Source of the DNA: Thermoplasmata archaeon M9B2D
GTDB taxonomy: Archaea; Thermoplasmatota; E2; DHVEG-1
Direction: 5' to 3'
NCBI GenBank assembly: GCA_002900555.1
Contig: MUGD01000105.1
Coordinates: 1-6,560, forward strand
DNA length: 6,560 nt
Translations under genes and position numbers: made by a program
Notes under the pieces: generated by a model
Told to the model about the DNA's origin: nothing
The model's database searches: none
What the model saw: the letters and a program-made list of their open reading frames with translations, nothing else
Shown here: one piece after another, positions 1 through 3,297 of the stretch
Numbering within the stretch: the first letter of the stretch is position 1
Layout: each line of letters opens with the position of its first letter

Positions 1-273
1 TTTCCAATCACATTCATGATTGTCTGATATCATAAAGATTATATTCCCTTTGTTTAGACCTTTCGTTACCATCTGACGAATGGTGGTCCATCCATCCATA
101 TGGGGCATCATGATATCCATTAAGATGACTCCTTTGAAACCGTTTTCTAGTTCTTCGATACAATCTTTTCCACAAGGGACAGTGAACACTTCGAATCCTT
201 CTGATTCAAAGAGTTCGCGGATGGTGATAAGAACGTCGGGATCATCATCGACAATCATAATTTTCTTTTGCAT
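1..273 (-). CDS. Response regulator receiver (CheY-like) protein, N-terminal 91 residues; C-terminus beyond window edge
   Basis: Receiver domain of a two-component system, which takes a phosphoryl group on an Asp from a histidine kinase. The minus-strand reading gives 91 residues starting MQKKIMIVDDDPDVL. The acidic Mg-binding cluster is D9-D11, the phospho-acceptor is D53 inside LMDIMMPHMDGW, and the conserved Ser/Thr after strand 4 fits S83 in IIFMISDN. The switch Lys and any output domain lie outside the window, so a stand-alone receiver and a longer regulator cannot be told apart. The start is ATG at 273; there is no in-frame ATG between it and position 325 and no clear Shine-Dalgarno, which fits a leaderless or short-leader transcript. 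It lies 105 nt downstream of the 84-residue gene on the same strand, with a T-run and a possible TATA between, so it may have its own promoter. The family call is secure; partner kinase and output are unknown. Confidence 0.93.
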   Translation of the reverse strand, partial: MQKKIMIVDDDPDVLITIRELFESEGFEVFTVPCGKDCIEELENGFKGVILMDIMMPHMDGWTTIRQMVTKGLNKGNIIFMISDNHECDWK

Positions 274-378: not shown

Positions 379-633
379 CTAGGTTATCATTGGGTCAAAT
401 ATATCGTTATTTTCATTTAATCTGGTCTTTTGTCGTCCGTTCAATCGTTTCGCAATATGGTATAAAAAATTTTTTTCAACCATTTCAACTTGTCTTTTGC
501 TAAGATTTGTTTTCCGAATCAATATTTCTCCTTTTTCATTGATCACTTCGATAATTCCTCGTTCTGGGTCTGATATAACTTTAAAGGTTTTTCCTTTTGT
601 TTGAAGCCAGTCCCAGATATGTTCACTCGTCAT
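379..633 (-). CDS. 84-residue protein of unknown family, paralogue of the 75-residue gene at 1669-1896
   Basis: I do not recognise a named domain. The real-gene argument is homology inside the window: it aligns end to end with the product of 1669-1896 with one single-residue gap. Shared positions in this protein's numbering are M1, T2, I6, W9, K18, I20, S21, E24, G26, I28, E33, I37, R40, T42, L44, Q48, V49, E53, F56, K62 and R67, about 20 of 70 columns by eye. The pattern suggests short beta strands (about 16-40) followed by an amphipathic helix (about 45-64). This copy has an extra Asn/Asp-containing tail (70-84). There is no signal peptide, membrane segment or cysteine pair, so it is probably cytosolic. 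It is divergent from the KaiC-like gene at 899 and upstream of the receiver gene. AAGGAA about 6 nt before the ATG may be a ribosome site. A role as partner or regulator of KaiC or the receiver is inference from position only. Confidence 0.8.
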   Translation of the reverse strand: MTSEHIWDWLQTKGKTFKVISDPERGIIEVINEKGEILIRKTNLSKRQVEMVEKNFLYHIAKRLNGRQKTRLNENNDIFDPMIT

Positions 634-674
634 AAATATTCCTTATATTTTATTAATTTTAAGTTATTTTGTGA

Positions 675-683
675 GTATATAAA
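675..683 (-). promoter_or_regulatory. TATA box for the 84-residue gene
   Basis: The minus strand reads TTTATATAC, a good archaeal TATA box. A start about 25 nt on would lie near 654, leaving a leader of about 20 nt that contains the AAGGAA ribosome-site candidate before the ATG at 633. Confidence 0.5.
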
Positions 684-766
684 CATTCCTACAATATAAG
701 AAAAAAAAATTAAAAAGCTTCTTCTTATAAAGACGTTTTTTCACTCTGACATAGTAGCACCCAGCG

Positions 767-775
767 TTTATATAG
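767..775 (+). promoter_or_regulatory. Orphan TATA-like box inside the 634-898 intergenic region
   Basis: TTTATATAG on the plus strand would place a transcript start near 797, about 100 nt before the KaiC-like ATG, with no convincing gene directly after it. It overlaps one half of an inverted repeat, GTACAA (775-780) and TTGTAC (805-810). It could be a second promoter with a long leader for the KaiC-like gene, a small RNA promoter, or chance in AT-rich DNA. Confidence 0.25.
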
Positions 776-863
776 TACAAGTAAAAGAAAAAGACACAGT
801 ATAATTGTACAAAAGGAACTGGGTTTAAAATGATCAGTGAAAATAAAAGCACCGTTAGAATTC

Positions 864-874
864 TTTATATAAAA
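864..874 (+). promoter_or_regulatory. TATA box of the first KaiC-like gene
   Basis: TTTATATAAAA is a near-ideal archaeal TATA box, centred about 30 nt before the ATG at 899. The predicted start of transcription falls within a few nt of that ATG, so the mRNA should be leaderless or nearly so. The absence of a Shine-Dalgarno sequence there agrees with this. Confidence 0.65.
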
Positions 875-898
875 GCATCTTAATTAAGTGGTTTTGTA

Positions 899-1678
899 AT
901 GTATGATAAAAAAATGGAAGAATTGGAAGAAGAACGGGTAATCAAGACCTACATTCCTGGATTTGACGAGTTATTTGCCGAAGGTGGTATTCCAAAGCGA
1001 AATTCTGTGTTAGTTGCAGGTGGGACTGGGACCGGAAAGAGTACATTTTGCAGACAAATCTGTTATACTCTTGTAACCCTTGGAAAAAATTGTATGTATG
1101 TGAGTTTTGAGGAAAGCATTGAGAAAATCGAGCGGAGTATGGCGTCATTTGGTTGGAACGCTAAAAAATATATTGATTTTGGATATCTGATTATTCAAAA
1201 GATAAATCCTCTTGATATTTTACGGATGAAGTTTGGTTCTGTTAGTGGTTCGGGGTCAGCGACAGAATTGTCATATAAGATCAAACCGTTGATTATCCCA
1301 AAGGATTTTCATCCGGAGGTTATCGTGGTTGACTCGTTAACCGCTGTCATCTCTGCATCCATTAGTAAAGAGAAAAATTACAGGGTGTATTTACAGCAAC
1401 TGTTTAGTTTCTTTGAGGAAACCGGGGCGACATCGTTTTTAATAACAGAAACAGAACCAATGCCGACGAGATTCAGTGATACGGGGATTGAAGAGTTTTT
1501 AGCTGATGGAATCCTTGTGTTGTATAATATTCAGCGTGGTGATTGTCGGGAAAACGCCATTGAAGTTCTGAAGATGCGATATTCAAATCATGAGAAAAAG
1601 GTTTTTGCGATGGATATTTCTAATCAGGGTATTAAGGTGTACCCGGAACGAAAAATAATGCTGCCTGGTTATAAATAA
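899..1678 (+). CDS. Single-domain KaiC-like RecA-fold ATPase, with the catalytic Glu pair
   Basis: A 259-residue single KaiC domain, half the size of the two-domain cyanobacterial clock protein and typical of stand-alone archaeal KaiC homologues. The N-terminal family motif YIPGFDELFAEGGIP is at 18-32. Walker A GGTGTGKST is at 41-49, the catalytic-type glutamates are E71-E72 in VSFEES, and Walker B is VIVVDS at 141-146. The late motif EEFLADGIL (198-206) and KMR (225-227) complete the core. A Gly/Ser-rich stretch (113-120) lies before Walker B. It probably hydrolyses ATP and assembles as a hexamer, acting in signalling rather than recombination; the target is unknown. The start ATG at 899 is chosen because a TATA box sits about 30 nt before it; Met6 is an alternative. 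Its last 10 bp overlap the convergent gene at 1669-1896, and it is divergent from the 84-residue paralogue. Family call is secure; clock function should not be assumed. Confidence 0.95.
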   Translation: MYDKKMEELEEERVIKTYIPGFDELFAEGGIPKRNSVLVAGGTGTGKSTFCRQICYTLVTLGKNCMYVSFEESIEKIERSMASFGWNAKKYIDFGYLIIQKINPLDILRMKFGSVSGSGSATELSYKIKPLIIPKDFHPEVIVVDSLTAVISASISKEKNYRVYLQQLFSFFEETGATSFLITETEPMPTRFSDTGIEEFLADGILVLYNIQRGDCRENAIEVLKMRYSNHEKKVFAMDISNQGIKVYPERKIMLPGYK

Positions 1679-1896
1679 GTGAATGGTTCTTTACGGTCAC
1701 CGATTTTTTTAAGGGCGTACGCTGCAAAGATAAGTTCGATGGATTTAACTTGTTGTCTTGTAAGTCCTGTCCGTCTGAGTATGATATTGTCGCACTCGTC
1801 GTAAATAGAAATGGTGCCTGATTCTTTGTTTGATATAGCTTTGAGTATTCTGTTGTTTTGCACCCAGATCCAGATTTTTATGTCTTTGGCAGTCAT
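1669..1896 (-). CDS. 75-residue protein of unknown family, paralogue of the 84-residue gene at 379-633
   Basis: No named domain is recognised. It shares with the 84-residue protein the N-terminal MT, I6 and W9, a central K-x-I-S and E-x-G-x-I stretch, and the R-x-T-x-L-x-x-x-QV-x-x-x-E block (residues about 41-54), so both are probably real genes of one small family. Expected structure is beta strands followed by a C-terminal helix. A single Cys (C35) argues against a zinc site. It is tail-to-tail with the KaiC-like gene, overlapping it by 10 bp, and divergent from the second KaiC-like gene, whose start lies 169 nt away. A TATA box is centred about 28 nt before the ATG at 1896, suggesting a leaderless transcript. 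The placement between two KaiC genes suggests a KaiC partner or regulator, but this is inference. Confidence 0.8.
   Translation of the reverse strand: MTAKDIKIWIWVQNNRILKAISNKESGTISIYDECDNIILRRTGLTRQQVKSIELIFAAYALKKIGDRKEPFTYL
1704..1710 (+). terminator. T-run after the first KaiC-like gene, inside the convergent small gene
   Basis: Seven T on the plus strand, 25 nt past the KaiC-like stop, of the kind that terminates archaeal transcription. Because it lies within the opposite-strand 75-residue gene, a KaiC transcript ending here would be antisense to the 3' end of that gene's mRNA. Confidence 0.35.
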
Positions 1897-1929: not shown

Positions 1930-2024
1930 CTACATTATAAATATATAAATATTTTCATAAATATTAATATACTATCAGAAAACCATGTCAATAATCAGCA
2001 CGCGATGACGATTGGATACAACAA

Positions 2025-2065: not shown

Positions 2066-2824
2066 ATGGCACTCATCCAAACGGATAATAAAGCCACAGT
2101 GAGAAATTTAGAACGAGTTAAAACTGGAGTGAGAGGACTTGATGAATTACTTTCAGGTGGTCTGCCAAAAGAAAGCGTTACTCTTGTTTCAGGCCCTCCA
2201 GGAAGTGGAAAATCTATCTTTTGTATACAATTTCTAGCTAAAGGAATTGAAGAAGGGAAAAAATGTCTCTATCTTACGCTTGATAAAAAAATCGAAGGGC
2301 TTCTCCTTCAGGCAGCAGAACTTAGTATAAATTTAGAACCAGCGATACAAACTGGACAAATAAAATTTTTATTTCTTAACATCAATAAAAAACTTATCTA
2401 CGAAAGTATGATCAACGAAATCCTTTCTGGAAATTACGATCGTGTTGTTCTTGACTCTATCACACCTCTTTCTGAAATGCCTATCTATATCAACAACCCT
2501 GAATTCAACAATGAGGTTAATAACATTGATCACGACGAGGTAGGCAAAGGCAATCTCCCTGTTCGACGATTACATCTGCATTACATCATGAATGCCTTAG
2601 AAACAGCAAAATGCACTGCAGTAGTTACCTCAGAACTGCCATCCAGTTCAATGAACTATTCACGTGATGGTCTCTCCGAATTCCTTGCTGACGGCGTTAT
2701 CCTCCTTAGCCTTGACCCGACAATGGATCGGCGCAAACTCGCAGTAATGAAAATGCGAAGTACCAAACACACACTTAAACCACAGAACATCGAGATTGGA
2801 AAAGGCGGCATACAAATCGTCTAA
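2066..2824 (+). CDS. Second KaiC-like ATPase, with Asp-Lys replacing the catalytic Glu pair
   Basis: A single KaiC domain of 252 residues from the ATG at 2066. Upstream in-frame starts would encode an 18-residue extension lying over the TATA box and are unlikely. The family motif TGVRGLDELLSGGLP is at 20-34, Walker A GPPGSGKS at 43-50, Walker B VVLDS at 127-131, SEFLADGVILL at 204-214 and KMRSTKH at 229-235. The position where KaiC has two glutamates reads LTLDKK, with D73-K74, so ATP may be bound but hydrolysed slowly or not at all. An Asn-rich insertion of about 25 residues (about 138-164) follows Walker B. It starts a plus-strand pair with the methyltransferase 5 nt downstream. It differs enough from the first KaiC-like protein not to be a recent duplicate. 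A structural or sensor role, perhaps in mixed assemblies with an active KaiC, is inference. Confidence 0.93.
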   Translation: MALIQTDNKATVRNLERVKTGVRGLDELLSGGLPKESVTLVSGPPGSGKSIFCIQFLAKGIEEGKKCLYLTLDKKIEGLLLQAAELSINLEPAIQTGQIKFLFLNINKKLIYESMINEILSGNYDRVVLDSITPLSEMPIYINNPEFNNEVNNIDHDEVGKGNLPVRRLHLHYIMNALETAKCTAVVTSELPSSSMNYSRDGLSEFLADGVILLSLDPTMDRRKLAVMKMRSTKHTLKPQNIEIGKGGIQIV

Positions 2825-2829
2825 GTGCT

Positions 2830-3297
2830 ATGTTGCATTACAAACCACCAAAAGAACTGCGGGCACTTTTTATCGTCCATTATTCACCATTGCTGCTTAT
2901 TATCCTAATCGGGCCGCTCACCCCCTTCTATAAGGTTTGGGAAATTCCCTTACCAAAAACCATGACTGTTCTTTTTGGTTGTATCATTTTTCTTCTTGGC
3001 ACATATGTCTATTTTAAGTGGGAAATCTTCTGGAATAAAACGTATACAGGGCAACTTGTTACCGAGGGGATTTTCCAGTACATAAGACACCCGCACTACA
3101 CATCCATTCTTATCATCGGATTTGGTCTTGCATTGTTTTTCTATTCACTGTTTGCTTTCAGTATCGCCCTGATTGCCATCCCGATAATGATATGGAGTAT
3201 TCTTGACGAGGAAAAGGTACTCCTACGGCAGTATGGAGAACCATATCGTGAGTACATGAAAAAAGTTCCTTGGAGAATGATACCAAAGGTTTATTAA
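2830..3297 (+). CDS. Integral membrane methyltransferase of the isoprenylcysteine carboxyl methyltransferase/PEMT type
   Basis: A 155-residue membrane protein matching the ICMT/phospholipid methyltransferase fold. The SAM-binding signature is in the C-terminal half: GIFQYIRHPHY at 80-90, the Glu pair in DEEKVLL (126-132), then YGEPYREYMKKVPWRMIP (135-152). Hydrophobic segments lie at about 15-33, 44-65 and 92-124. The family transfers methyl from S-adenosylmethionine to a substrate held in the membrane, such as a prenylcysteine carboxylate, phospholipid amine or other lipid. The archaeal substrate cannot be read from sequence. The ATG lies 5 nt after the KaiC-like stop with no obvious Shine-Dalgarno, which points to co-transcription and translational coupling. 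A functional link to KaiC is only suggested by this spacing. Confidence 0.88.
   Translation: MLHYKPPKELRALFIVHYSPLLLIILIGPLTPFYKVWEIPLPKTMTVLFGCIIFLLGTYVYFKWEIFWNKTYTGQLVTEGIFQYIRHPHYTSILIIGFGLALFFYSLFAFSIALIAIPIMIWSILDEEKVLLRQYGEPYREYMKKVPWRMIPKVY

What the first reader, a model, noticed from the sequence alone, without database searches (positions are those of the whole stretch)
379..1896. Two paralogues of an unrecognised small protein family placed around a KaiC-like gene
The 84- and 75-residue minus-strand proteins align along their length (shared MT, I6, W9, K-x-I-S, E-x-G-x-I, R-x-T-x-L, QV-x-x-x-E), yet I cannot assign them to a known family. One is divergent from the KaiC-like gene at 899 and the other is convergent with it and divergent from a second KaiC-like gene. 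A response regulator lies next to the first. Two copies kept beside KaiC genes suggest a dedicated partner, for example an adaptor between receiver and ATPase. The paralogy is seen directly; the role is inference.
Basis: partly seen in the sequence, partly recalled or inferred. Interest (0 to 1): 0.7.

Follow-up and report, generated by a model that had tools for sequence, protein, structure and literature searches.

The report
Small protein family beside archaeal KaiC genes
Two related small proteins of unknown function sit next to a pair of clock-protein-like (KaiC) genes in a group of uncultured archaea; one of them is kept in the same place between the two KaiC genes in dozens of genomes, so it is probably a working part of that signalling module, although what it does has not been tested.

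Summary
The 84-aa (SP84) and 75-aa (SP75) proteins are true paralogues (E 2e-12), are under purifying selection and match no Pfam or NCBIfam family. The family was found in 48 of 389 sampled Thermoplasmatota genomes.

SP75 is locked into a KaiC module. In 43 of 45 loci, window included, it is convergent with KaiCA. In 39 of 45 it is divergent from KaiCB. The block pilin-like gene - KaiCA - SP75 (opposite strand) - KaiCB - ICMT-like gene tends to stay together while flanks change. KaiCA keeps the presumed catalytic glutamate; KaiCB has Asp-Lys/Arg there.

SP84's usual neighbour is a secreted NosD/PKD gene (14 of 19 loci). It borders KaiCA in the window because that gene and the pilin-like gene are missing there. 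A receiver follows SP84 in 7 of 19 loci. A third paralogue sits in a chaperone/stress locus without KaiC (10 loci).

Predicted fold: beta-beta-beta-beta-alpha, weakly WGR-like. Best explanation: SP75 is a dedicated regulatory partner of the KaiCA/KaiCB pair in a surface-structure module. Main rival: a nucleic-acid-binding local regulator. Binding is untested.

The parts
379..633 (-). SP84, 84-aa member of the small-protein family
1669..1896 (-). SP75, 75-aa paralogue lying between the two KaiC-like genes
899..1678 (+). KaiCA: single-domain KaiC-like ATPase, presumed catalytic Glu retained (SFEE); Walker A GGTGTGKST
2066..2824 (+). KaiCB: second single-domain KaiC-like ATPase, Walker A GPPGSGKSI, Glu positions replaced by Asp-Lys (LDKK); start chosen by comparison with orthologues
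1..273 (-). Receiver-domain protein (cut by the window start), downstream of and co-directional with SP84
   Evidence: the same pair in L102, L105, L107-L110
2830..3297 (+). ICMT/PEMT-like membrane methyltransferase, last gene of the conserved block
   Evidence: family c3 found in 38 of 61 loci
676..687 (-). SP84 promoter element AATGTTTATATA (BRE/TATA-like)
1942..1953 (-). SP75 promoter element AATATTTATATA, shared with SP84 and rare upstream of other genes
733..774 (+). Upstream element TTTTTTCACTCTGACA... plus TTTATATA that belongs to the promoter of the secreted c4 gene in relatives; here it stands before KaiCA
830..883 (+). 17-codon ORF at the place where the c4 gene starts in relatives; probable leftover of the lost c4 gene (inference)

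Best explanation
SP75 is a small regulatory partner of a two-ATPase KaiC module that serves a surface or secreted structure in a clade of Thermoplasmatota. Shown: in the loci read the fullest form of the block is c4 (secreted NosD/PKD protein) - c2 (pilin-like membrane protein) - KaiCA - SP75 (opposite strand) - KaiCB - ICMT-like methyltransferase, and SP75 is held in place between an ATPase with the presumed catalytic glutamate (KaiCA) and one without it (KaiCB). Inferred: SP75, made in quantity from its own strong promoter, binds one or both KaiC ring proteins and sets their ATPase or assembly state. A signal, in some lineages from a stand-alone receiver, would be passed on to the pilin-like and secreted proteins. 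SP84 would be a diverged copy tuned to the c4 side of the module, and SPc a copy used in a stress locus. The binding step and its direction are not shown.
For: Linkage: 43 of 45 SP75 genes convergent with KaiCA within 302 bp; 39 of 45 divergent from KaiCB. Of the other six, L068, L096 and L100 lie at contig ends, L069 was missed because of an overlong start call, and L097 and L098 lack KaiCB. The five-gene block c2-KaiCA-SP75-KaiCB-c3 persists (c2 family in 39, c3 family in 38 of 61 loci) while genes outside it change: aconitase-like genes, c4/SP84, CorA-like gene or ribosomal L3/L4. Co-occurrence: both in 43 genomes, KaiCA alone in 2 (one of them with a partial SP at a contig edge), SP alone in 4, of 389. 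KaiCA and KaiCB keep opposite states of the presumed catalytic Glu in 17 and 14 aligned orthologues. Promoter: AATRTTTATATA in 39 of 45 SP75 and 12 of 19 SP84 upstream regions against 2 of 646 other genes, 0 of 43 KaiCA and 0 of 41 KaiCB, which suggests strong expression separate from the KaiC genes. Rate covariation: SP75 with KaiCB, partial r 0.62 with ribosomal L3 as control, 18 loci, permutation p 0.0005 (p 0.0002). [quoted passage not shown]
Against: The third paralogue SPc keeps the same C-terminal motif (EPFTYL, exact in 7 of 10) in a locus without KaiC, so the family's basic activity is unlikely to be KaiC binding alone. G202 has KaiCA but no intact SP, and G166 and G217 keep KaiCA plus SP but lack KaiCB. 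The KaiCB-specific rate covariation is not robust: with the aconitase-like gene as control the values for KaiCB, KaiCA, ICMT and c2 are 0.38, 0.28, 0.31 and 0.20; without the two KaiCA outliers, or inside single clades, SP75 covaries with KaiCA about as well under several controls, and in clade B better with c2 under some. Conserved gene order within one archaeal clade can partly reflect shared descent.
Confidence: 0.45

Rival explanations
1. The SP proteins are small nucleic-acid-binding regulators. Each copy sits at a divergent promoter and controls the unit transcribed away from it: SP75 controls KaiCB-ICMT, SP84 controls c4-c2-KaiCA, SPc controls the Usp gene.
Confidence: 0.3
2. SP84 and SP75 are phospho-relay adaptors between the neighbouring receiver and the KaiC proteins.
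For: Receiver directly after SP84 on the same strand in 7 of 19 SP84 loci, window included. A receiver-like gene lies between SP75 and KaiCA, on SP75's strand, in G103 and G217. Receivers and a histidine kinase flank KaiCA in G202 (by eye).
Against: 12 of 19 SP84 loci have no adjacent receiver (one of them, L104, is cut by the contig start), and among the 44 non-window SP75 loci only L097 has one close to SP75 and KaiCA apart from those that come with SP84. The G217 and G103 receiver-like proteins seem to lack the usual acceptor Asp (read by eye). Four SP84 loci have instead a 112-114-aa gene that looks like a ribbon-helix-helix protein by eye, without a significant Pfam match in the two tested.
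Confidence: 0.12
3. The linkage has no functional meaning: SP75 is a highly expressed small protein of unrelated function that stayed in place by vertical descent next to a ribosomal-protein region.
For: Carriers were found in one part of Thermoplasmatota only (48 of 389 genomes). Ribosomal L3/L4 genes lie in the fetched stretch of 19 and 18 loci.
Against: Flanks outside the block vary while the triplet is kept. SP75 lies on the strand opposite to KaiCA in the 43 loci measured. The family co-occurs with KaiCA almost one to one.
Confidence: 0.13

Closest known systems
KaiC-family ATPases of archaeal type IV pilus and archaellum loci (ArlH/FlaH; KaiC arCOGs listed in PMC4858521)
   Same: Single-domain KaiC-like ATPases encoded with pilin-like and secreted proteins; PMC4858521 section 16 describes such associations.
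   Different: Here two KaiC genes are paired, one with and one without the presumed catalytic Glu, with a small ORF locked between them. NCBIfam ArlH and KaiC models match far below their cut-offs. Pilus motor and platform genes were not searched for.
KaiB and KaiA, the small partners of cyanobacterial KaiC (recalled)
   Same: Proposed role only: a small protein encoded next to kaiC that tunes the ATPase.
   Different: KaiB has a thioredoxin-like fold (recalled; PMC4858521 also calls the archaeal KaiB-like component thioredoxin-family). SP75 is predicted beta4-alpha and shows no Pfam or NCBIfam match.
arCOG03758 DEATH-like partner predicted for KaiC arCOG01174 (PMC4858521)
   Same: A predicted second component next to a KaiC gene in a pilus locus.
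   Different: Described there as alpha-helical; SP75 is mainly beta. Sequences were not compared here.
WGR domain (PF05406; PARP2, 2ra8)
   Different: 0-5% identity in those eight rows, no Pfam match of the window proteins at E 1, not among the 25 families listed for 99 members, and no WGR gene at E 0.01 in 145 Thermoplasmatota genomes.

Membership tests
KaiC-like ATPases (the two genes at 899 and 2066) | PF06745 domain over the gathering cut-off | tested here: met
   183.4 and 149.8 bits against a cut-off of 26.6
KaiC-like ATPases (the two genes at 899 and 2066) | Walker A motif and catalytic Glu after the second strand (position of the Glu recalled from cyanobacterial KaiC) | tested here: inconclusive
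   Walker A present in both. The second Glu is invariant in 17 KaiCA orthologues and replaced by Lys/Arg, preceded by an invariant Asp, in 14 KaiCB orthologues.
ArlH or circadian KaiC proper | NCBIfam equivalog cut-off | tested here: not met
   KaiCA: ArlH 62.6 of 215 bits, circ_KaiC 102.4 of 546 bits; KaiCB: 53.1 and 55.6 bits
WGR domain family (SP proteins) | Sequence match to PF05406 | tested here: not met
   no Pfam match of either window protein at E up to 1; not among the 25 families listed for 99 members
WGR domain family (SP proteins) | WGR fold | tested here: inconclusive
PC4/Whirly-type ssDNA-binding proteins (SP proteins) | Sequence match to a PC4 or Whirly Pfam model | tested here: not met
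   no Pfam match of either window protein at E up to 1; not among the 25 families listed for 99 members
PC4/Whirly-type ssDNA-binding proteins (SP proteins) | PC4/Whirly fold | tested here: inconclusive
   no such entry noticed in the 50 rows shown in each, which excludes nothing
KaiB | KaiB Pfam/NCBIfam match | tested here: not met
   no match for either protein at E up to 1
KaiC partner protein | Physical binding to KaiC | not testable with these tools
   co-folding and binding assays were not available

The most novel reading that the evidence does not exclude
SP75 is a KaiB-analogous partner with a beta4-alpha fold that couples a catalytically competent and a catalytically deficient KaiC into one switch. 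This would be a second-component family for archaeal KaiC unrelated to KaiB, controlling a pilin-like surface system, with paralogues reused at a secreted-protein promoter and in a stress locus.
Probability: 0.28. Interest if true: 0.75.

Novelty: new variant of a known kind. Interest (0 to 1): 0.5.

Why it matters
KaiC-like ATPases are proposed signalling hubs of archaea (mBio 2017 paper known only from citations seen; not held). [quoted passage not shown] A small family kept next to KaiC in more than 40 loci gives a concrete candidate that can be expressed and tested, and an active/inactive KaiC pair suggests how such a switch could be built.

Tried and rejected
Generic chance similarity of two short basic proteins: rejected by E 2e-12, the tree and dN/dS.

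Virus or mobile origin: one scan of viral contigs gave 77 pattern matches, none encoding a relative by tblastn at E 1e-3. The BFVD fold search gave no match at E 0.001.

PC4-like fold: my first guess from the secondary structure; no support. WGR: kept as a weak lead only.

SP84 as the dedicated reader of the upstream element TTTTTCAYTNTGAYANTTT: rejected as sole reader, because some genomes without SP84 carry as many copies (for example G157 29 against 2 in the reversed control, G163 15 against 0).

SP75-KaiCB-specific coevolution: strong at first but not specific after removing two loci with fast KaiCA (L070, L082) or within clades. In these runs locus L110 (split KaiCB) was dropped from all matrices, L099 and the SPc loci from SP75, and pairs with 30 or fewer shared columns were dropped.

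A conserved operator in the SP75-KaiCB region: only the core promoter stood out by eye. The c2 promoter lacks the upstream element (0 of 39 within three mismatches). The 'nucleic acid-binding' and 'YwqK antitoxin' names given by one source to a few members have no support.

Rfam, tRNA, PHROGs and PADLOC searches were not run. Phyla other than Thermoplasmatota were reached only by the protein searches and by one scan of genome contigs with SP84-type patterns (8 loci, titles Thermoplasmat*, Euryarchaeota or uncultured archaeon).

Full report
What is there. The window carries, from left to right, a receiver protein (1-273 minus, cut), SP84 (379-633 minus), KaiCA (899-1678 plus), SP75 (1669-1896 minus), KaiCB (about 2066-2824 plus) and an ICMT/PEMT-like methyltransferase (2830-3297 plus). 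SP84 and SP75 align over 63 residues at 33% identity, E 2e-12. Neither matches Pfam or NCBIfam at E up to 1. The database relatives listed are mostly unnamed or 'hypothetical protein'; organism names printed are Thermoplasmatales, Thermoplasmata or Thermoplasmatota records such as SM1-50. dN/dS values of 0.04-0.12 (8 unsaturated of 10 comparisons) show that both are maintained proteins.

Extent of the family. Profile A3 found matches at E up to 1e-9 in 47 of 389 Thermoplasmatota genomes. A broader profile raised G103 to E 1.1e-7 and left the further hits weak. The protein search with the profile gave 338 proteins at E up to 1, of which 120 were listed. Sixty regions around the strong matches were fetched, holding 73 members besides the two of the window, and four more regions for checks. 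A tree of these 75 members (few columns, many unresolved forks) has an SP84 group (19 rows plus the outlier L099) and a second group that holds SP75 (45 rows, window included) and SPc (nine rows in one clade, plus L062, which has the SPc surroundings but groups with L061 of the same genome).

Context of SP75. In 43 of 45 loci SP75 is convergent with a KaiCA orthologue, from a 12-bp overlap to a 302-bp gap. Of the two exceptions, L097 has two genes in between and L100 is a contig edge. In 39 of 45 it is divergent from KaiCB; the six others are contig ends (L068, L096, L100), an overlong start call (L069) and two absences (L097, L098). Those two genomes also lack a KaiCB orthologue elsewhere: G166 has no match at E 1e-45 and G217 only a 289-bit one. 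For L096 and L100 the genomes G100 and G227 have only a 283-bit match and none. Before KaiCA usually stands c2, a membrane protein with a pilin-like N-terminus (read by eye; weak DUF7289 match of 19.6 bits below the cut-off in one of two tested), and after KaiCB the ICMT-like gene. Family c2 is present in 39 and c3 in 38 of 61 loci. Genes outside this block differ between lineages (aconitase-like, hexapeptide, CorA-like, ribosomal L3/L4).

Co-occurrence. A KaiCA profile reaches at least 400 bits in 45 of 389 genomes; 43 of these also carry the SP family at E up to 1e-9. KaiCA without SP: G202, where only a match with three stops (E 7.8e-4) was seen elsewhere, and G103, where SP is cut by the contig end. 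SP without KaiCA: G178, G227, G255 and G267. In eight genomes examined, PF06745 gave 4-13 matching stretches per genome, so adjacency to KaiC by chance should be rare.

The KaiC pair. In 17 KaiCA orthologues the second Glu of the SFEE motif is invariant. In 14 KaiCB orthologues the corresponding residues are invariant Asp followed by Lys or Arg, while Walker A is kept. That this Glu is the catalytic one is recalled from cyanobacterial KaiC. KaiCA is thus likely the active ATPase and KaiCB a poorly hydrolysing one (inference).

Context of SP84 and SPc. SP84 is divergent from c4, a secreted NosD/PKD protein (two examples tested), in 14 of 19 loci and from KaiCA in 3 (window, L105, L106), where c4 and c2 are absent; L059 and L087 have neither. 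In the three loci the c4-type upstream element and TATA box still stand before KaiCA: best match within 3 mismatches for KaiCA in these 3 of 43 loci only, for c4 in 12 of 33, for other genes in 2 of 534. This suggests that c4-c2-KaiCA was one transcription unit (inference). A receiver follows SP84 on the same strand in 7 of 19 loci, and a 112-114-aa gene that looks like a ribbon-helix-helix protein by eye in 4 of 19. SPc surroundings were identified by Pfam in L062: CBS protein, universal-stress protein, DnaK, GrpE, thermosome and a class I tRNA synthetase. Of the 10 SPc loci, the same synthetase cluster is in 9, Usp and DnaK in 8 each and CBS in 6; L090 and L094 lie at contig ends. No KaiC was found in any of the 10 stretches.

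Receivers. Independently of SP84, a receiver-like gene lies between SP75 and KaiCA on SP75's strand in G217 (38.5 bits) and G103 (read by eye), and G202 has receivers and a histidine kinase around KaiCA (read by eye). A link of KaiCA to phospho-signalling is therefore plausible but varies between lineages.

Promoters. The element AATRTTTATATA lies upstream of 39 of 45 SP75 and 12 of 19 SP84 genes, 2 of 646 other genes of at least 100 aa, 0 of 43 KaiCA, 0 of 41 KaiCB and 0 of 9 SPc genes (genes with too little upstream sequence were dropped, and L099 is sorted with SP75 there). In genomes G110, G132 and G001 it occurs 62 times, the reversed control 42 times, so many sites need not be functional. 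I read 61 of the 62: 43 have an ORF of at least 60 aa starting 5-85 nt downstream, and 33 of the 43 begin with a hydrophobic stretch typical of exported proteins by a crude hydropathy rule, against 165 of 658 background genes. Of the ten others four are SP genes, one looks like a thermosome and one like TFB (by eye). Genes with TTTATATA upstream in the loci are also mostly of the exported type (21 of 32, c4 included), so the association is with strong TATA boxes in general. I take it that SP75 and SP84 are strongly expressed cytosolic proteins with the promoter type of surface proteins (inference).

Rates. With L3 as control SP75 distances follow KaiCB (r 0.62, p 0.0005, 18 loci) and not KaiCA, ICMT or c2. 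With the aconitase-like gene as control the four values are 0.38 (KaiCB), 0.28 (KaiCA), 0.31 (ICMT) and 0.20 (c2). Without two loci with fast KaiCA, or within clades, KaiCA does about as well under several controls and in clade B c2 does better under some. I read this as weak support for a KaiC link, not as proof of which KaiC is the partner.

Conclusion. The most likely role is a regulatory partner of the KaiC pair in a surface-structure module (0.45), with a nucleic-acid-binding local regulator as the main rival (0.3). In the listings of the searches made I saw no paper on this small-protein family; most subscription papers are not held, and the 2017 KaiC survey could not be read.

Noticed in passing
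window 733-774; consensus: Promoter element TTTTTTCATTTTGACATTTT-N-ACAC-NN-TA-NN-TTTATATA, mostly with fixed spacing to the TATA box. With one mismatch allowed in 19 bases, G211 has 29 copies (reversed control 2), G149 21 (3), G110 14 (2), G132 9 (1), G157 29 (2), G163 15 (0), against few or none in many of the 47 genomes searched. Examples identified by Pfam stand before an archaeal pilin, receivers, an acyltransferase, a glycosyltransferase and PKD or cohesin proteins; others have no ORF or short unknown ones (38 of 48 instances have an ORF of at least 50 aa). A likely surface/pilin regulon whose reader is unknown.
   Followed up: partly
L079, L084, L095 and others: between SPc and the Usp gene: A conserved ORF of about 40 codons (read by eye) on SPc's strand, and repeats of the type TTGTACAA-N-TACC and TGTACAATTGTTACC upstream of the Usp gene.
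   Followed up: no
L113 and L114 (G178 C1, G253 C78): Other KaiC-like genes, with no SP found in the stretch, lie next to pilin-like genes (read by eye), so the link of KaiC to pilin-like proteins is wider than the SP family.
   Followed up: no
L111 (G202 C106:1-9000): KaiCA orthologue surrounded by receiver genes and a histidine kinase (by eye), with neither SP nor KaiCB in the stretch.
   Followed up: partly
L055, L059, L060, L087 next to SP84: A 112-114-aa protein with an N-terminus that looks like ribbon-helix-helix follows SP84; no significant Pfam match in the two tested.
   Followed up: no
L099 (G267 C13:2366-2563): A diverged 65-aa family member, apparently beside a clamp-loader-like gene (read by eye), away from KaiC.
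   Followed up: no
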